A program made the position numbers and the translations under genes. A stretch of 64,000 nucleotides of DNA, taken from Actinoallomurus spadix (GTDB taxonomy: Bacteria > Actinomycetota > Actinomycetes > Streptosporangiales > Streptosporangiaceae). The stretch spans positions 170,604-234,603 of the forward strand of contig NZ_JAMXMX010000013.1 of the NCBI RefSeq assembly GCF_024055725.1, given 5' to 3'. Shown here piece after piece: positions 1 to 64,000 of this stretch. The notes under the pieces are model-generated. The model was given only the letters and a program-made list of their open reading frames with translations. It had not been told where the DNA came from and searched no databases. How positions within the stretch are numbered: the stretch's first letter is position 1; each line of letters begins with the position of its first letter.

Positions 1-3000
1 CGCGGGCCGCGCGGAGCGCGCGGAGCAGCACGTCGTCGAAGGAGCTGGCGTCGAGCAGCTCGGCGTCGTCGACCACCACGACGTACCGGTCGTGGCCCTC
101 GACGATCTCGTCGAAGCGGTACGCCTCGTCCAGGCCCTCCAGGACGGCGAGGACGCCCGGCTCGCCGCGCAGGTCGCGGAGCGGGGAGCGGCGCGGGCAG
201 ACCAGGACGACCGGCACGGTGCCCTCGCCGATCCGCGGGTCGAGCAGCGATCGCACCATCGTCATCAGGACGGTCGAGCGGCCGGAGCGGGGCGGGCCGG
301 CGACGGTGAAGCCGGGGCCGTCGGCGAGGAGGTCGGCGCCGATCGGGGCGAGTTCGTCGCCGCCCGCGCCGACGAGCGCCCACAGCGGCGACGGGGCGGT
401 GAAGTCCGGGTCGAGGGACAGGGCCTCGGCGTAGGTGACGTGGACCGGGAGCTCGTCGACGTGGAGAGGGCGCTGGGCGCGGGCCGGCCGGTCGTACGTG
501 CGCTCGGCCTCGCGCGCGAGGCGTTGCAGGGCGGCGACCTGGGCGGTGCCGGCGGCGACCTCGGTGAGCAGGGCGATCTGGGACTCGCGCAGGGCGCCGT
601 CCGGGCCGACCGCCTCCAGGACGCGACCCGGTGGCAGGTCGGAGGGGAGGTGGCGTTCGTCGAGGCCGGCGTAGGCGTAGTCGTTCGGGTCGGCCATGCG
701 GAGGACGAGGCGGCCGTCGAAGACAGTGGAGATCTGGCCGGTGAGGCCGGAACGGTCGCCGGTGAAGACGGCGCGCAGGCCGACGGCGGCGCCCTCGCGG
801 AGGAGGCGCAGGAGGGAGTCGACGAGGCGGCCGTAGTCGTAGTTCTCGAACGCGGCGACGTAGCCCTCCCAGCGGTCCAGCAGGAGGAGCATCCAAGGGA
901 GGCGGTCGGCGGGCGCGGCGGCGGTGCGCTGTTCGGCGAGGGAGGAGAAGCCGGTGGCGGCGAGGATCTGCTGGCGGCGGCCGACCTCGGCGTGGAGGCG
1001 GGCGAGGAGGCGTTCGAGGCGTTCGGTCTGGTCGCGGCCGACGACGGCGCCGCAGTGCGGGAGGGCGACGAGGGGGAGCAGGGCGTTGCCGCCGCAGTCG
1101 ATGGCGTACAGGTGGGCGTCGGAGGGAGCGCAGGTGGCGGCGAGGGAGCCGGCGAGGGTGCGCAGGACCGTGGAGCGGCCGGAGCGCGGCGAGCCCGCGA
1201 CGTACACGTGGCCGCCCTGGACGAGGTCGAGGGCGAGGACGGAGCGGGTCTGGGCGGACGGCAGGTCGGTGAGGCCGAACGCGAGCGGCGGCACGTCGTC
1301 GTGGTCGGTGAACACGGCGGGCAGGTCGCCGAGGGTGACGCGGGCCGGGAGGGGCTCGAGCCACGGCGCCGGCTGGTCGTCGAGGCCGGCGCGGTCGGCG
1401 GCGTCGCGGATCGCGGCGACGAGGGCCCGCAGGTCGGTGATCGTGGTCGCGTCGTGGTCGGCCGGGCCGGTCACCGGGAGGGGACGGCCGAGGCCCTGCC
1501 AGGGGAGGGGGACGACCTCGGCGGGGGTGGTGGCGTGGGCGCCGGGGCGGCGGCCGCCGATGCGGGCCGACTGGACCGCGTGCGGTGCGGCGGCGCCGGA
1601 TCGTACGTAGCAGCGGCCGGGCGTGGCCTTGGAGATGCGGGCGGCGGACGGGTCGTCGATGATGTCCGTGGACTCCTCGGGCGCGGTGACGCGCAGGGCG
1701 ATCCGCAGGTTGGTGTTGGCGCGGATGTCGGCGGTGACGACGCCGGCGGGGCGCTGGGTGGCGAGGAGCAGGTGGACGCCGAGGGACCGGCCGCGGCGGC
1801 CGATGTCGACGAGACCGTCGACGAAGCCGGGAAGCTCGGCGGCGAGGGTGGCGAACTCGTCGATGACGAGGACGAGGCGCGGCATCCGGATGGAGGCGCG
1901 CGGGTCGCCGTCGTCGTGCAGCTCGCAGTAGTCCTCGATGTCCTTGGCGCCGGCGTGCAGGAGGATCTCCTCCCGGCGCCGTAGCTCGGCGCCGAGGGAT
2001 TCGAGGGCGCGTTCGGTGAGGTGGCCGTCGAGGTCGGTGACCACTCCGGTGACGTGCGGGAGCGCCGCGCAGTCCTGGAACGCGGCGCCGCCCTTGTAGT
2101 CGATGAGGACGAAGGTCATCTCGTCGGGGCGGTTCGCGACGGCGAGGGACGCGATGAGGGTCTGCAGGAGCTCGGACTTGCCGGCGCCGGTGGTGCCGGC
2201 GATGAGGCCGTGCGGTCCGTCGACGCGCAGGTCGACGGTGAAGACGCCGTCGGCCGACAGCCCGATGGGGACGGCGGTGGTACGCCCGCCGGCGGCCCAG
2301 ACGGCCTGGACGTGGGCGGCGGTGGGGTTCTGCATGCCGAGGACGTCGAGGAGCCGGGCCTCGCGGGGGACGGCCGACTCGGCGTCGTCGCGGGACACGT
2401 CCCGTACGGGGGCGAGGGCGCGGGCCATGCGGTCGCACCAGCCGGTGGAGACCTGGTCGGCGAGGATCGGGCCGGCGGAGTCGAGGCCGTGGCCGCGCAG
2501 CCGTACGTGCGTGGGGTGGTCCCAGTCCCACATCGCGACGGCGGTGCACTCCTCCGGCAGGAGACGTTCGTCGTCGTCGATGCAGATCGCGTGCAGCCCG
2601 TACGCCGGGCCGCTGGACAGGACCTGCGGCATGCCCGGCATCCGGCGCAGGCGGCGCGCGCCGTCCATGACGAGGAGGATGTTGTACGGGCCGGCGCCCT
2701 GGGGGCCGAAGAGGCCGCCGGTGGAGCGGTCGGCGGTGCGGCGGCGTTCGGTGACGCGGATCGCCAGCTCGGTGATGCGGTGCGCGACGGAGGCGGGGTC
2801 CGCGCCGATCAGGGCGACGCACTCCTCGCCCTCGCGGGGGGCGGAGTGCGGCAGCCAGCGGACCCAGTTCCAGTGGTCGCCGCCGTCGGGGTCGGCGCAG
2901 AGCACGACGATGGCGAGGTCGCGGGGGCTGTGCAGGGCGGCGGCCTGCGCGACGAGCCAGCGGGCGAGCGCGCGGGAGCGGTCGCGGGGGCCGGCGAGCC

Positions 3001-4222
3001 CGATGACGCCGAGGTCGGCGAGGGGCAGGGTGACGGGGACGGCGTGGGCGACGGGCTGTTCGGGCATGACGGGGTCGGTGTCGCCGCCGCGACCGGGGAC
3101 GAGCTCGATGTTCGCGGGCTGGTCGGCGAGGCCGACGCGCAGGTGCAGGGTGTCGGCGTCGGAGCGGCGGCGTTCCCAGAGCCGCCGGCGCGGGCCGGTG
3201 GCGGTCAGCAGCACCTCGGCGGGGTCCGGCGCGAGGGCGCGGCGGTCCTGCTCGTCGGCGTGGCGCAGTTGCTCCAGCGCGGCGTCGAACTCCTCCTTGG
3301 CCCGCCGATGGGCCTTCATCGCCCTCTTGTAGGAGGTGCGGCCGTACATCCGGTCGCCGATCCACTCGCCGACCTGGATGACGGGGTACGCGAGCGCCAT
3401 CAGCGCCCAGTACCACTGGCCGGTGACGACGGCCATGACGACGCCGGTCGCGGCGAACAGCAGTGAGCCGAGGAGCCGGAGCCGTACGCGCTGCGTCTTC
3501 GGCGGCTCCTGCGGGACCTCCAGCCTGGTGCGCCGCTCGGGCGGCAGCAGGCGGGGCGGCCGGTTGTAGGCGAGCCCGCCGTCGTCCAGCGGCGCGAGGT
3601 GGGCGTCGGGGGCGGTGGCGGGGACGTAGGTCAGGACGGACGAGCCGACGGTCAGCATCGCGCCGGGCCGCCACTGGGCGGTGCCGTCGAGCGGGGCTCC
3701 GTCGAGGAGGGCGTCGCCGGCGGCGGCGACGGCGACGCTGACGGTGACGCGGTGCGACTCGACCGTGACGGTCAGGGCGTGCGCGGGGACGGCCGGGTCG
3801 CCGAGGCGTACGTCCACGTCGGGGCCGCTGCCGAAGGTCGTCTCGCCGATGCCGACGCGGTGCACGGCGCCCGCGGCGGGGCCGCCGGTGACGCGGATCT
3901 CGGCGCTGCCGGTGGGCTCGGTCAGGACCGTCGCGACGGCGCCGGCGGGGTCGAGGGCCACGAGGGCGCCGTCGCGCAGGACCCGCGCGGCGGGCACGGC
4001 CGGATCGAGCATGCGGCCGCCCGCCCACAGGGGCGGCGCGGATTCGGGCACCCAGCGTGCGCTTGGTAGGTGGACGACTTCCGCGAGGGCCTCTTTGACC
4101 GGCTCGGTGTTGAGCGCCGTAATTAGTGATCTCGCAACGGTTTCTACCGTCATATCGGAATCACCGTTGACCACGACGTCACGGGGACCTTGATCGGTCA
4201 TCACCGTGAGCGAGATTCGCAT
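1..4222 (-). CDS. FHA-domain FtsK/SpoIIIE ATPase, EccC-like, truncated at window edge
   Basis: This minus-strand reading frame is open from an ATG at 4222 to the left edge, about 1,407 codons, so the C-terminus is missing. A Shine-Dalgarno GGAGGGG lies just before the ATG. The N-terminus (roughly residues 110-170) looks like an FHA domain, with FGSGPDVDV and PAHALTV. Two membrane helices follow near residues 245-285. The first ATPase domain has a canonical Walker A (GTTGAGKS, near residue 670) followed by VLIDYKGG. The second and third P-loops, near residues 1010 and 1305, read GSPRSGRS and GPPRSGRS, with Arg replacing the catalytic Lys. Three tandem ATPase domains behind two membrane helices is the EccC layout of type VII secretion, where the protein drives WXG100 substrates across the inner membrane. 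An N-terminal FHA is the variant seen in actinomycetes outside Mycobacterium. The gene diverges from the Tad operon. Family assignment is firm; the substrate is unknown. Confidence 0.88.
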   Translation of the reverse strand, partial: MRISLTVMTDQGPRDVVVNGDSDMTVETVARSLITALNTEPVKEALAEVVHLPSARWVPESAPPLWAGGRMLDPAVPAARVLRDGALVALDPAGAVATVLTEPTGSAEIRVTGGPAAGAVHRVGIGETTFGSGPDVDVRLGDPAVPAHALTVTVESHRVTVSVAVAAAGDALLDGAPLDGTAQWRPGAMLTVGSSVLTYVPATAPDAHLAPLDDGGLAYNRPPRLLPPERRTRLEVPQEPPKTQRVRLRLLGSLLFAATGVVMAVVTGQWYWALMALAYPVIQVGEWIGDRMYGRTSYKRAMKAHRRAKEEFDAALEQLRHADEQDRRALAPDPAEVLLTATGPRRRLWERRRSDADTLHLRVGLADQPANIELVPGRGGDTDPVMPEQPVAHAVPVTLPLADLGVIGLAGPRDRSRALARWLVAQAAALHSPRDLAIVVLCADPDGGDHWNWVRWLPHSAPREGEECVALIGADPASVAHRITELAIRVTERRRTADRSTGGLFGPQGAGPYNILLVMDGARRLRRMPGMPQVLSSGPAYGLHAICIDDDERLLPEECTAVAMWDWDHPTHVRLRGHGLDSAGPILADQVSTGWCDRMARALAPVRDVSRDDAESAVPREARLLDVLGMQNPTAAHVQAVWAAGGRTTAVPIGLSADGVFTVDLRVDGPHGLIAGTTGAGKSELLQTLIASLAVANRPDEMTFVLIDYKGGAAFQDCAALPHVTGVVTDLDGHLTERALESLGAELRRREEILLHAGAKDIEDYCELHDDGDPRASIRMPRLVLVIDEFATLAAELPGFVDGLVDIGRRGRSLGVHLLLATQRPAGVVTADIRANTNLRIALRVTAPEESTDIIDDPSAARISKATPGRCYVRSGAAAPHAVQSARIGGRRPGAHATTPAEVVPLPWQGLGRPLPVTGPADHDATTITDLRALVAAIRDAADRAGLDDQPAPWLEPLPARVTLGDLPAVFTDHDDVPPLAFGLTDLPSAQTRSVLALDLVQGGHVYVAGSPRSGRSTVLRTLAGSLAATCAPSDAHLYAIDCGGNALLPLVALPHCGAVVGRDQTERLERLLARLHAEVGRRQQILAATGFSSLAEQRTAAAPADRLPWMLLLLDRWEGYVAAFENYDYGRLVDSLLRLLREGAAVGLRAVFTGDRSGLTGQISTVFDGRLVLRMADPNDYAYAGLDERHLPSDLPPGRVLEAVGPDGALRESQIALLTEVAAGTAQVAALQRLAREAERTYDRPARAQRPLHVDELPVHVTYAEALSLDPDFTAPSPLWALVGAGGDELAPIGADLLADGPGFTVAGPPRSGRSTVLMTMVRSLLDPRIGEGTVPVVLVCPRRSPLRDLRGEPGVLAVLEGLDEAYRFDEIVEGHDRYVVVVDDAELLDASSFDDVLLRALRAAR

Positions 4223-4358
4223 TACCCCTCCGGATTCGCCGTCTGCCGGACCAGGATAGAGAGGGTTCCGGGGTCTCTCCAGCGGCTTCGACCGAGTGCA
4301 GTCTTGATCACTTAACAGGACGGCGACATCCGGGACGAAACAATCTGTGGATGCCGCA

Positions 4359-4387
4359 TTGACGCGGAGCGGTAAGGACGGAACGAT
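4359..4387 (+). promoter_or_regulatory. candidate promoter of the Tad operon
   Basis: TTGACG (4359-4364) and AACGAT (4382-4387) are separated by 17 bases, a good sigma70-type spacing. They lie about 60 bases upstream of the first Tad gene in the divergent intergenic region. The assignment rests on sequence only. Confidence 0.4.
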
Positions 4388-4398
4388 GGTTCGCCGCG

Positions 4399-4416
4399 TC
4401 CCGTCAACGCCGACAG
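4399..4416 (-). repeat. intergenic repeat core, copy 1
   Basis: The plus-strand TCCCGTCAACGCCGACAG matches 17 of 18 bases at 20914-20931 and resembles the cores of the 68-bp elements at 45732-45799 and 47993-48060. It lies in the leader between the Tad promoter candidate and the first Tad start codon. Confidence 0.45.
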
Positions 4417-4447
4417 TCCGCAATCCCCCGAATTGGCGGAGTATCCA

Positions 4448-5299
4448 GTGACGACGAGCAGTGATCGCAAGAGCGTCGCCGACACCTCCGGGCGGCCGTC
4501 GCTCGCGGTGGCGGCCGGCCACCGGATTCCCGTGCCGCCCCGGGAGCGCAAGCCGGCGATGGCGGCGCTGGCCGTCCTGCTCATCGTCGGAGGCGCGCTG
4601 GTCAGCGCCTATCTGGTGATGGCCAGCGGGCAGCGCGTCCCGGTCATCCGGGTGGCCAAGCCGGTCGCCGCGGGGCAGCGCATCCCGGCGTCCGCGCTCC
4701 AGGAGGTCCAGGTCTCCTCGACCGGCGGCCTGGACTACATTCCGTGGCGGGACCGCGCGAAGGTCACGCAGACGTACGCGACCGTCACGCTCGTCAGCGG
4801 GTCGCTCCTGACCAACGGGATGATCAGCACGGCCGCGTCGGCGGCCAAGGGCACCGTCGTCGTCGGGCTGGCGCTCAAGCCCGGTCAGCTCCCGGCGGGC
4901 GGCCTGCACCCGGGCGACCGCGTCGCGGTGTACGCCGTGGCGGTCGAGGGACAGACCGCGATCCAGGCCGGTGCCGTGCTCGCGCCGGCCGCGATGGTCT
5001 ACGACGTCGCCGGGCCCGGTCAAAACGACATCCAGAGCGACCAGGTCCAGGTGTCGGTGACCGTGCCCACGGACGAGGCCCCGCTCGTCACCCAGGCCGC
5101 GTCGGCGGGCGCGGTCGCGGTGGCCGTCCTCGCGCCCGGCGAGCAGGCGTCCGGGAAACGGCCGCGCGCCGCCACCGCCCCGACCGCCGTGCCCCCGACG
5201 CCGCAGCAGTCGGCGACCGGCCGGCAGCCGGCCCCCGGCCGCACAACACCACACCGGCCGTCCTCCGGCGCCTCCGGTGGCGCGACGGGCAGGCCCTGA
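4448..5299 (+). CDS. SAF-domain membrane protein, CpaB/RcpC-like, Tad pilus
   Basis: The protein has 283 residues if it starts at GTG 4448, chosen because GGCGGAG sits six bases before it. A TTG at 4433 is in frame but has no ribosome site. Residues about 37-59 form one membrane helix (MAALAVLLIVGGALVSAYLV). A SAF fold follows, with VIRVAKPVAAGQRIP near residue 66 as the usual entry strand. The last 55 residues are Pro/Thr/Ser/Gly-rich and probably disordered. CpaB/RcpC proteins are periplasmic or cell-envelope partners of Tad secretion systems, and here the gene opens the Tad operon. Its TGA overlaps the next ATG (ATGA), so the two are translationally coupled. Confidence 0.8.
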   Translation: MTTSSDRKSVADTSGRPSLAVAAGHRIPVPPRERKPAMAALAVLLIVGGALVSAYLVMASGQRVPVIRVAKPVAAGQRIPASALQEVQVSSTGGLDYIPWRDRAKVTQTYATVTLVSGSLLTNGMISTAASAAKGTVVVGLALKPGQLPAGGLHPGDRVAVYAVAVEGQTAIQAGAVLAPAAMVYDVAGPGQNDIQSDQVQVSVTVPTDEAPLVTQAASAGAVAVAVLAPGEQASGKRPRAATAPTAVPPTPQQSATGRQPAPGRTTPHRPSSGASGGATGRP

Positions 5300-60485: not shown

Positions 60486-60770
60486 TGCCGGGGCGTTACG
60501 GCTCGCTGCGCTCGTGAGGGGGATCGAGCTGGTGATCGTGCGGGTGGTCCGGCCGGCATCGGCTTCCAGGGGTGTTCGGTGTCGGGTGTGGTGTGGGCGG
60601 GATGGTTGTGTGGGTGGGATGGGTGGTGGTTCTCGTCCGTTTCGGGGGTTGATTTTTGAACCGTTCGCTCGTTTGATCCGTATGTCGATGGTGTGGGCTT
60701 TTTGGTCCGCGTTGATAGGAACAGGGACGATTCGGGTTCCGGGTCGGGATACCGGTGTGGGGAGGCGGCT
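60486..60770. other. intergenic region before the giant gene
   Basis: This stretch holds no convincing gene. It is G/T-rich on the plus strand, with TTGATTTTTGAACCG and TTTTTGG tracts, and shares the relaxed composition of the DNA to its right. A promoter for the giant gene should lie here, but no clear -35/-10 pair stands out. Confidence 0.5.
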
Positions 60771-63700
60771 ATGCGGGTGGCTGAGTGGCGTAAGTCGGCT
60801 TGGAGTGCTGCGGCGTGTCTGGAGGTTGCTCCGGTGATCATCACGGAGCAGGATCCTGTGACGGGGGCGGTTATCGCCTTTGAGGCGGCTCCGGCTGGTT
60901 CCCCGCAGGTCGGCACCGCCGTTGAGGGGGCTGGAACGGTTGGCGCGCCGGTTTCGGCCGGTGGTGTGGGTGCTGTGGCCGGCCGTGGTGAGGTCACTGC
61001 CATGGCGGCGGGTGCTTCGCTGGCTGCCGATGATGTGCTTGCGGCGCTGGTGCCGGCTGTGGATGCCGGTGTGCCGGTGGTTGAGTCGCAGTTGAAGGGC
61101 GTGGTCGCGAAGGTTGCGAAGTGGGCGGCGGAGATGCCGGCTGAGTTGTCCGCTGGTGAGGAGCAGGCGTGTGCGGTGTTGATGCGCCGGTTCGCGACGG
61201 GGGATGTCAGGCATGGGATGCCTCGTGGTGAATGGGCTGATGGTGGCGCCGTGGAGGCCGGTCGTGGTGATCGTGGCCTGTTCAGCCGTCTTGTTTCGGC
61301 TTCTGTTGTCGATGACGCGGTGGTGGTTTCTGATGCGGTGCATGTGCGTTCTTTGGGGGTGCCGGCTGAGGATTGGGTGCGGGTCGGTACGTGGGAGGAG
61401 CTTTTTGATGTCGTGACCGGCGGTGTTGAGCTGGAGGCGGGTGGCGGGGTTGTTGTTCCGGCGGCGGTGTTCGTGCGGGTGCGGCAGCCTGGGACGACGG
61501 CGCATATGGTGGGGCTGGTTCCGGCTGTGGGTGATGATGGTACGGAGCGTGTGTGGCGTTTTGACCCTGACTTCAGTGCCGCTGCGCGGCAGGCTGAGAT
61601 CGAAGCCCTTAAGCGGAGCGGCATTGATACCGGAAAGGTTCAGGGGCTGATCGCCGCCGGCTGGGCCGGGCAGTGGCTGCACGAGACAGGCCCGGACGAT
61701 ATGAAGCGCTGGTCTCCTGTTACCGCCAGTGCTTTGTTCGTGGACGAGAGTGGCCACGTTTTCAAGCCGCGGTTTGATGCCGCTCTGGAGTCGAGCAGGC
61801 CTTATTGGGCGCTCACCGACCCGACCGATCCCCGCGTCGCAGGCCGTATCCAACTACCGAGCGACAAGCAAAAGGTGTGGGAAGGATTCAAAAAAGCGAA
61901 AGGATCAGGCATCTCCGCTAAAGATATTCGTCTGGACATCTTCAAGGGCGCTCGCGCGCTCGAAGATATCATAAAGATCATCGGCCTCCTCGCCGGCGAA
62001 AATCCCGGCGCGATCCGAACCTTCAAAAAGCCCGGTGAAAGAACACGGTATTGGGGGCTGAGGTTCGACCCTGACAATCCGGGGGTAAACTACCTCCCAC
62101 CACTCGATGCTCTTGACATTGAAAACTTGGACGTTCCTCCTAAAACCGTGGAGTGGCTGCGGGACGCTCTCACCAAAGCAGGGGAGGCCGGCCTGCCCGC
62201 GTACGAAATCGACGTAGAGGCGTTCAATTCCGATAAGTTGATCGATGACCTCGCCGTCCTTTACTCTGGGCGATTCCGGACCTGGATTGCAAAGGTTAAA
62301 GGAAGCCGTGGAGGGGGTGGTGCAGGGGTCCTGGAGCGATTTTATGGTCCGGTGCGCGATGCGAACGGTCTTCCCTACCCAAAGCCGGACGGTGCCGGTG
62401 AAGTGCATGAACTCCTGCCCAGTGGCACTTCCAACCGACGGTTGGCGAGGCTACGGTATAACCTGCTCATTGCGGGCCGTGAGCAGATTGCGGGCCGTAA
62501 GGAGTCGGCCGGCATCTCCCGTCGGGACATTAACGATTCATTCAGTCATGTAACAAAAGAGGTGGCCGACAAGCTGATCGACGAACTCGGTGTCCGTTGG
62601 CCTGGCCGGTTCCGGACCTGGGAAATCGGTGGCAGAAACGTTTCCGGCTATGTCGGGCCGGTGTACCGTCCGGATGGGGAGGGGGAGTACGAGCTTCCTG
62701 AGGGTGCCCGTGACGTTGTGGTGCTCGGGGCTGTCCCCGCGCCTGGAGCCGGTGTTGTTCGAGCGGGCGCCGCTGGCGGGGGCCTCAACGCGGACGAGCT
62801 CCTGCGATTTGACGTGATGGAGCTGGGGTATGTCGTCGCCGGAGTGGGGGAGGGTGGTCTGCGCGTCGATGAAATCGATAGGCGGATGCCTCCGAGCGTG
62901 TCCGGTGTTACTAGGCATGAGTTGATCAGTCGGCTCGGTGACTTCTACCCCGGCCGGTTCCGGACCTGGAGAATCGGCAACGCCGACTATGTTGGGCCGG
63001 TTTACCGTACGGATGGGGAGGGGGAGTACGACCTTCCATTGGGTGCCAGTGACGTTGAGGTGCTCGACGCGTTTTTGCAGGCTGATATGACGGCGCTGTG
63101 GCTATTCCTCATCGAAGGGGGGGAGGACGGCCGGCGCCTCATCAACGGCCAATTCGCGGGTTTCGAGAGCGTTTCCGGTCGTACTGCGGGTGAGTTGGTC
63201 GGCCGGCTCGGTGACTTCTACCCCGGCTGGTTCCGGACCTGGCCGGTTCATGATGATGCGGACGCCGTTCATTATGTTTACGGGCCGGCGAAAAACCCGC
63301 AGGGAGAGCTCTATCCGGCCCCGGCTGGAGCCTATGAGGGAGTGTTTTCTGTTCTCGGTGACAGCTCTGCGTCCGGGGTCGATGGGGGTTATGGGGGCTG
63401 GGCGGCGTCCGGGGCGGGTTTGCAGGGGGCTCAGGAGTCGGGTTATCAGGTGCCGCAGGCGTGGCCGCAGGGTGCTGGTCCTTCGGTGTCCGCGTCCGGG
63501 TCCGATGATAGGGGTTATGGGTCTGGGGTCTCGGTTCCTGGGTGGGGCTCTAATGTAGCGTTTTCTCAGTATTGGCATGGTGGTGCGGGTTCTGGTTCTG
63601 AGGGTTTTGAAGCTGGCCACGTCCTTGGCAGTTCGGGTGATTTCAATTACTTCAAGGATGTGGTAAACGTGGCCAAGGCGGCACTTAGGCGGCCTATCAC

Positions 63701-64000
63701 TATTGAGCAGTATTTGGCTGATGTCGGGGCGAGAGGTGTTGATGAGCCGGTTGCTCGGGCGGCCTGGAAGCAGGCCGTTGCTGAGGCTTTTCCGGGTGGT
63801 GCGGTGCAAGAGCCTTTTGTGGGGCTGACGAACGTTGTTGTGCCGTCGTTTGAGGATGTTTTTGGTGCGGCTGGTGGTGGGGAAAAGCGGGTGGCCGGTG
63901 GTGTTGGTGGGGGTTGGGGTGCGGGTTTGGGGGGGGTGCCGGAGGGTGTGCGGTGGGTGAATGCTCTTCGGGCGTATTCGTGGGGTCTGGAGTTTGTTCC
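60771..64000 (+). CDS. giant multidomain protein with tandem FRTW modules, runs off right edge
   Basis: The frame is open from ATG 60771 (GGGGAGG five bases upstream) to the window end, at least 1,076 codons without a stop. Residues 4-40 resemble DUF397 (EWRKSAWSAAACLEVA). Residues about 120-275 could be a papain-like or toxin-deamidase-type domain, with Cys134 (EQACAVLMRRF), His245 (TTAHMVGLV) and Asp265 (VWRFDPDF). From about 355 to 850 there are about five repeats of 85-115 residues. Each ends in a block like YPGRFRTW followed by YVGPVYRxDGEGEYxLP; the FRTW or RTF arginines lie near residues 416, 501, 613, 729 and 820. A Gly/Ser/Gln-rich linker (about 860-930) and a helical part follow. 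Codons end in T far more often than in the rest of the window, and 61840-62260 is especially AT-rich. I do not recognise the whole protein; a polymorphic-toxin-like secreted protein is one possibility. Confidence 0.85.
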   Translation, partial: MRVAEWRKSAWSAAACLEVAPVIITEQDPVTGAVIAFEAAPAGSPQVGTAVEGAGTVGAPVSAGGVGAVAGRGEVTAMAAGASLAADDVLAALVPAVDAGVPVVESQLKGVVAKVAKWAAEMPAELSAGEEQACAVLMRRFATGDVRHGMPRGEWADGGAVEAGRGDRGLFSRLVSASVVDDAVVVSDAVHVRSLGVPAEDWVRVGTWEELFDVVTGGVELEAGGGVVVPAAVFVRVRQPGTTAHMVGLVPAVGDDGTERVWRFDPDFSAAARQAEIEALKRSGIDTGKVQGLIAAGWAGQWLHETGPDDMKRWSPVTASALFVDESGHVFKPRFDAALESSRPYWALTDPTDPRVAGRIQLPSDKQKVWEGFKKAKGSGISAKDIRLDIFKGARALEDIIKIIGLLAGENPGAIRTFKKPGERTRYWGLRFDPDNPGVNYLPPLDALDIENLDVPPKTVEWLRDALTKAGEAGLPAYEIDVEAFNSDKLIDDLAVLYSGRFRTWIAKVKGSRGGGGAGVLERFYGPVRDANGLPYPKPDGAGEVHELLPSGTSNRRLARLRYNLLIAGREQIAGRKESAGISRRDINDSFSHVTKEVADKLIDELGVRWPGRFRTWEIGGRNVSGYVGPVYRPDGEGEYELPEGARDVVVLGAVPAPGAGVVRAGAAGGGLNADELLRFDVMELGYVVAGVGEGGLRVDEIDRRMPPSVSGVTRHELISRLGDFYPGRFRTWRIGNADYVGPVYRTDGEGEYDLPLGASDVEVLDAFLQADMTALWLFLIEGGEDGRRLINGQFAGFESVSGRTAGELVGRLGDFYPGWFRTWPVHDDADAVHYVYGPAKNPQGELYPAPAGAYEGVFSVLGDSSASGVDGGYGGWAASGAGLQGAQESGYQVPQAWPQGAGPSVSASGSDDRGYGSGVSVPGWGSNVAFSQYWHGGAGSGSEGFEAGHVLGSSGDFNYFKDVVNVAKAALRRPITIEQYLADVGARGVDEPVARAAWKQAVAEAFPGGAVQEPFVGLTNVVVPSFEDVFGAAGGGEKRVAGGVGGGWGAGLGGVPEGVRWVNALRAYSWGLEFV

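What the first reader, a model, noticed from the sequence alone, without database searches (positions are those of the whole stretch)
60771..64000. Giant gene with about five tandem copies of an unrecognised FRTW module
The plus-strand frame is open for at least 1,076 codons. It contains repeated units of 85-115 residues. Each has a helical part (for example ADKLIDELGV), then YPGRFRTW, then YVGPVYR-DGEGEYELP-GA-DV. The helical part followed by a short beta/wing-like tail suggests a winged-helix-like adaptor repeated in tandem. The DNA TTCCGGACCTGG is identical in four units, so the duplications are recent or being homogenised. I know no family with this module.
Basis: partly seen in the sequence, partly recalled or inferred. 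Interest (0 to 1): 0.82.

Follow-up and report, generated by a model that had tools for sequence, protein, structure and literature searches.

The report
Winged-helix beads on giant bacterial protein
The window ends inside a very large gene of an Actinoallomurus bacterium that encodes five tandem copies of a module matching no described sequence family searched and predicted to fold as a winged helix; the copies likely serve as protein-docking beads on a giant protein that probably belongs to a family whose other members can lie beside a type VII secretion gene.

Summary
From 60771 the frame is open to the window end, which is also the contig end, so the gene is cut. A profile finds five units (residues 362-863). 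No Pfam, NCBIfam, PHROG, PADLOC or PDB sequence matches the protein. The 'recent or homogenised' claim fails: units share 37-58% of their DNA, whereas units 1-3 share 70-78% with their counterparts in a paralog. The paralog's fourth unit is a hybrid of window units 4 and 5 joined at the FRTW core, so copy number changed by recombination there. The module was found only in three genes of this genome and in a second assembly of one of them.

The rest of the protein says more: a half-DUF397 motif with one cysteine, a predicted papain-like domain (C134, H245, D265), the five modules, and probably a roughly 1,300-residue C-terminal block that is constant in Actinoallomurus giants of up to 9,558 residues. 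[quoted passage not shown] I read the modules as docking beads in a variable N-terminal cargo; that step is inferred.

The parts
60771..64000 (+). Open reading frame, 1,076 codons held, cut by the contig end; expected full length about 2,400 aa by comparison with the C49 paralog (inference)
   Evidence: the ATG follows GGGGAGG
60780..60890 (+). N-terminal half-DUF397 motif WRKSAWSAAACLEVA with Cys16
   Evidence: 18.3 bits to PF04149, cut-off 24
61020..61817 (+). Predicted papain-like cysteine-enzyme domain; candidate triad C134 (61170-61172), H245 (61503-61505), D265 (61563-61565)
   Evidence: alignment A6/A7, weak model and fold matches, relatives matching PF15644
61854..62132 (+). Module 1 (degenerate, AIRTF)
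   Evidence: profile match
62139..62420 (+). Module 2 (FRTW)
   Evidence: profile match
62433..62729 (+). Module 3 (FRTW)
   Evidence: profile match
62805..63071 (+). Module 4 (FRTW); the unit whose structure was predicted
63078..63359 (+). Module 5 (FRTW)
   Evidence: profile match
63360..63896 (+). Gly/Ser-rich linker region
   Evidence: translation
63897..63998 (+). Start of the constant C-terminal block, judged by its alignment to the C49 paralog

Best explanation
The window's last gene encodes the start of a very large protein in which five tandem copies of one roughly 90-residue module, predicted to fold as a winged helix, follow a predicted papain-like cysteine-enzyme domain; the modules likely act as protein-docking beads rather than DNA readers. 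Shown: the five units, their divergence, the recombination joint in the paralog, the restriction to this genome among the genomes searched, and the terminal motif. Predicted: the winged-helix fold and the papain-like fold with C134, H245 and D265. Inferred: the gene runs into the constant C-terminal block of the Actinoallomurus giants; [quoted passage not shown] the variable N-terminal part is its cargo; the bead array holds a partner or target next to the papain-like enzyme, which modifies or cleaves a protein; changing the number of beads changes what is held.
For: Five units by profile. Confident winged-helix model with winged-helix matches. Net charge of the third helix -2 to +2 in 11 units, positive in 2 of 11; 7 of 11 units negative overall. 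Cys and His invariant in 6 of 6 papain-like rows, Asp in 5 of 6; papain-type enzymes lead the VIA list by title; a relative's domain passes PF15644 with 28.2 bits against 24.1. Constant C-terminal block in 6 of 8 genus genomes and in 0 of the 330 others examined, behind N-terminal parts of about 200 to about 8,160 residues. EccC above both NCBIfam cut-offs directly before one giant, whose first start overlaps its stop by 4 bases, and near three others. The paralog's fourth unit is a hybrid: N half 81% to window unit 4, C half 70% to unit 5.
Against: No type VII gene is seen beside the window gene or its two paralogs in the sequence held; treZ lies upstream and nothing is held downstream. The window's papain-like domain gives no PF15644 hit, its model is weak (pLDDT 61), and the C49 paralog has Asn for the Asp. 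Winged helices are best known as DNA binders (recalled), and the strand-wing stretch is net positive in 8 of 11 units. No binding partner is known; that the docking array is the function is argued from charge and setting only.
Confidence: 0.45

Rival explanations
1. The modules are a nucleic-acid-binding array: five winged helices in a row grip DNA or RNA, in the producing cell or in a target cell.
For: The fold; many VIA rows are DNA-binding regulators by title. The strand-wing stretch is net positive in 8 of 11 units, and the Arg of FRTW is invariant in 11 of 11 rows.
Against: Third helix positive in only 2 of 11 and 7 of 11 units negative overall; the related giants are nearly cysteine-free and some are encoded with type VII secretion genes.
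Confidence: 0.17
2. The modules are themselves payload: the papain-like domain cuts the giant after export and frees single winged-helix units, which then act on their own.
For: Internal Tox-PL1 domains are proposed to self-process toxins (PMC3482391, passages); the units are separable ~90-residue domains.
Against: No cleavage site was looked for or seen; gaps between units 1 and 2, and 4 and 5, are only two residues; the paralog has Asn for the triad Asp.
Confidence: 0.15
3. The array is a passive spacer that drifts in length by recombination inside a gene under little constraint.
For: Lineage restriction; unit number differs between paralogs through a crossover.
Against: Both paralogs keep the frame open over whole held lengths; six residues are invariant in 11 of 11 units; the core codons are unchanged.
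Confidence: 0.15

Closest known systems
Winged-helix domains; top structural row is a subunit of human RNA polymerase III (9fso chain F)
   Different: 6% identity; no sequence family match; third helix not basic in 9 of 11 units; an extra strand after the wing with an invariant Y and P
Papain fold toxin 1 / Gln_amidase PF15644 (Tox-PL1 of Zhang et al. 2012, PMC3482391, passages seen)
   Same: Cys-His-Asp order; relatives in the same genus match the Pfam model; described as often type VII-linked
   Different: The window domain itself gives no Pfam hit, lies at the N-terminus, and lacks the printed NC ... DxQ signature (it has AC and DPD)
DUF397 (PF04149), small partners of XRE regulators such as Scr2 and BldB (PMC6262351, PMC4239341, passages seen)
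   Same: W-R-K-S ... C-x-E-V-A start
   Different: Only part of the domain (profile positions 1-45 at 18.3 bits), as a motif at the ends of giant proteins
Giant multi-toxin proteins of actinobacteria (PMC3482391, passages seen)
   Same: Very large actinobacterial proteins with enzyme domains
   Different: Here the C-terminal block is constant and the N-terminal part varies; no Pfam toxin domain in 9,282 residues of two giants scanned, mostly cargo

Membership tests
Winged helix | Three helices followed by a two-stranded wing | tested here: met
   Predicted model, pLDDT 94.2; structural matches
Winged helix | Basic recognition helix, for the DNA-binding kind | tested here: not met
   Net charge of helix 3 is positive in 2 of 11 units; charge alone does not settle binding
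Winged helix | Sequence match to a described family | tested here: not met
   No Pfam, NCBIfam or PDB sequence match for the window protein
Papain fold toxin 1 (PF15644) | Score above the Pfam cut-off | tested here: not met
   No hit at E 1 for the window domain; C44 protein 21.7 bits, below 24.1, its cut-out domain 18.1; a G005 relative 28.2, above
Papain fold toxin 1 (PF15644) | Cys, His, Asp catalytic residues | tested here: met
   C134 and H245 invariant in 6 of 6 rows, D265 in 5 of 6
Papain fold toxin 1 (PF15644) | Papain-like fold | tested here: inconclusive
DUF397 (PF04149) | Score above the Pfam cut-off over the 55-position domain | tested here: not met
   18.3 bits against 24, profile positions 1-45
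Type VII secretion substrate | Gene in a type VII locus | tested here: inconclusive
   Not seen for the window gene, whose downstream side is missing; seen for relatives in G006 and G007, EccC also near in G001
Type VII secretion substrate | Export dependent on EccC | not testable with these tools
   Needs a secretome experiment
Polymorphic toxin | Constant N-terminus with a swapped C-terminal toxin | tested here: not met
   In this family the C-terminal block is constant and the N-terminal part varies
Polymorphic toxin | Adjacent immunity gene | not testable with these tools
   Downstream sequence not held

The most novel reading that the evidence does not exclude
A new bacterial delivery chassis: giant, nearly cysteine-free chains with a constant C-terminal block, an N-terminal cargo that varies about forty-fold in length, and a cysteine hairpin (half a DUF397 domain) at each end that links or docks the chains through the type VII machinery. 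The FRTW array is one cargo: a new family of tandem winged-helix adaptors that hands targets to a papain-like enzyme.
Probability: 0.15. Interest if true: 0.85.

Novelty: new variant of a known kind. Interest (0 to 1): 0.58.

Why it matters
It adds a lineage-specific winged-helix family used as tandem beads, unusual for a fold known mostly from DNA binding (recalled). It also points to a group of giant proteins, up to 9,558 residues, with no Pfam hits in the two giants whose N-terminal parts were scanned, a constant C-terminal block, and cysteines almost only at the ends. If they are type VII substrates, they would test how such long chains leave the cell, and why DUF397, known from developmental regulators, caps them.

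Tried and rejected
Recent duplication or homogenisation of the units: rejected. An earlier unit-identity table used free end gaps and gave meaningless 100% values; one search replaces it.

Module outside this genome: 341 genomes of the family, own included; 6 others at E 0.003-0.009; 345 of the order, nearly the same set; one further, G038, at 0.001; 394 drawn from the class; two others, 3e-4 and 8e-4. Only the best 12-14 first-look candidates per genome were scored. All nine weak hits were opened: G038, G242, G248, G249 and G252 lie in topoisomerase I, G512 and G610 in TruA, G020 and G177 in low-complexity frames that look non-coding; these names are recalled from the sequence. I take them as chance, also the topoisomerase C-terminal repeat resemblance in G038. 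One weak partial match on the other strand of C44 of the own genome was not opened. A 258-residue query found none in 59 other genomes at E 0.001.

No relative in plasmids (C49 protein), phages (module region), viral contigs or, with the N-terminal query, genome contigs. Protein searches scored only the roughly 8,000 candidates sharing most words. PHROGs and PADLOC gave nothing for the window protein at E 0.1.

That this family is undescribed rests on paper searches only, in an open-licence library.

Full report
Observation. The plus frame from ATG 60771 (or GTG 60693) is open to 64000. The ATG follows GGGGAGG. The window ends where contig C4 ends, so the gene's 3' part is missing. TTCCGGACCTGG lies at 62274, 62610, 62958 and 63231. 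A profile of 11 aligned units finds five units in the window protein, four in a paralog on contig C49 and two in a more distant protein on contig C44, all in the same genome. Unit 4 alone finds the stretch before it at E 2.2e-20 and the stretch after it at 1.5e-10, against 0.13 for the best of 1,000 shuffles.

Age of the units. Within the window the units share 37-58% of their DNA letters and 18-46% of residues. Units 1, 2 and 3 share 70, 78 and 76% of their DNA with their counterparts on C49. So the array is older than the split of the two paralogs. All seven FRTW cores (four in the window, three on C49) use the same codons, which codon use alone (TTC 0.72, CGG 0.40, ACC 0.62) would rarely give. 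The paralog's fourth unit is 81% identical to window unit 4 up to FRTW (63% to unit 5) and 70% to window unit 5 after it (42% to unit 4). That is the mark of a crossover at the core that removed or added one unit.

The giant family. The C-terminal half of the C49 paralog finds a protein of Actinoallomurus soli and one of another Actinoallomurus. The A. soli contig of 126,703 bases has the length and the match of contig C13 of genome G001, which the tool puts in the window's genus; so the window is taken to be from Actinoallomurus. In the genus, frames of up to 9,558 and 7,438 residues carry the same block. In a comparison of nine members, a C-terminal block of about 1,250-1,400 residues is shared by seven (the window protein is cut before it, the C44 protein lacks it), while the part before it runs from about 200 to about 8,160 residues and is mostly unshared. 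The block's most conserved module was found in 6 of 8 genus genomes and in none of the other 330 of 338 examined. The window's last 34 residues match the block's start, and its last 50 bases are identical to C49. That the window gene continues into the block is therefore likely but not shown. A second, unnamed assembly holds the C49 protein with 1,077 of 1,078 residues identical, so it is most likely the same species.

Ends and cysteines. The six giants of other genus genomes that I read begin with a W-[RH]-x-[SP]-x-x-S ... C motif, close to W-x-x-S-S-x-S in five of six, and end with W-R-x-[SA]-[ST] ... C-V-S-V in six of six. Over 13 proteins there are 39 cysteines in 40,674 residues, and 27 of the 39 lie in the first or last 60 residues; in the nine that I took as complete at both ends the figures are 27, 30,298 and 21. 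The four dropped from the second count are the window and C49 proteins, one G004 giant with an uncertain start and one G001 frame cut by the fetched stretch. For comparison EccC has 6 in 1,354 and two trehalose enzymes have 3 in 698 and 3 in 758. What the end motifs do is not known.

Type VII link. The gene before the 9,558-residue giant is EccC above both NCBIfam cut-offs (753 and 744 bits), and the giant's first start overlaps its stop by four bases. In G006 the order is EccC, a 2,126-residue protein ending in the cysteine motif, and the 7,438-residue giant. The second G007 giant starts about 5.7 kb after an EccC gene, and in G001 an EccC gene follows the giant. In G005 the nearest EccC on the contig is about 25 kb away, and in G004 none is on the giant's contig in the list. 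The 2,126-residue protein looks WXG100-like at its N-terminus to my eye only; Pfam and NCBIfam gave no such hit. A DUF397 gene, bldB, is reported close to type VII genes in Streptomyces pratensis (PMC4239341, passages), and DUF397 proteins pair with XRE regulators (PMC6262351, passages). The window gene and its two paralogs are not beside such a locus in the held sequence; the genome does have EccC genes elsewhere.

Locus. In 6 of the 7 other genus genomes I read about 12 kb from treZ on; none has a relative of the window gene there, and DNA similarity stops at the end of treZ (G004 not fetched). The gene is thus a lineage-specific gain at this place.

Reading. I commit to a docking array: a string of predicted winged helices between a predicted papain-like enzyme and a long linker, as one cargo of a type VII-linked giant family. 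The fold is well supported, the enzyme moderately, the export link by relatives only, the docking role by charge and setting only. Giant actinobacterial toxins with many domains, and Tox-PL1 domains proposed as toxins or self-processing enzymes, are described (PMC3482391, passages), so the kind of protein is not wholly new. The module, the constant C-terminal block and the cysteine-capped ends were not found described in searches.

Noticed in passing
L008:6890-8128 (minus), contig C49: A 413-residue gene with a DUF397-type motif and the same papain-like domain ends 25 bases before the paralog's start.
   Followed up: partly
L009:5614-9366, contig C44: A complete 1,250-residue relative with cysteine end motifs at both ends, a papain-like domain, about five copies (by eye) of a short helical repeat (VTEAALLDAAKYAQ...) and two FRTW-type modules; a compact candidate for the bench.
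   Followed up: partly
window 60500-64000: GC skew rises to +0.36 to +0.44 and AT skew falls to about -0.41 to -0.47 in both ends of the held gene, but both are small over 61500-62499.
   Followed up: no
window 2-5254 (minus): An FtsK/SpoIIIE ATPase related to EccC (33% to the G007 EccC), with a match below the cut-off (28.9 against 33.2 bits) to PF16697.
   Followed up: no
P0002, unnamed contig of 505,066 bases: Another assembly's copy of the C49 protein (1,077 of 1,078 residues identical) stops at residue 1,078, close to where the window contig breaks; near-identical C-terminal blocks of the paralogs may break assemblies there.
   Followed up: partly
L048:15150-20000, L049:1-14400, L051:1966-10560: 9,282 residues, mostly N-terminal cargo of two giants, give no Pfam hit at E 0.01.
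   Followed up: no
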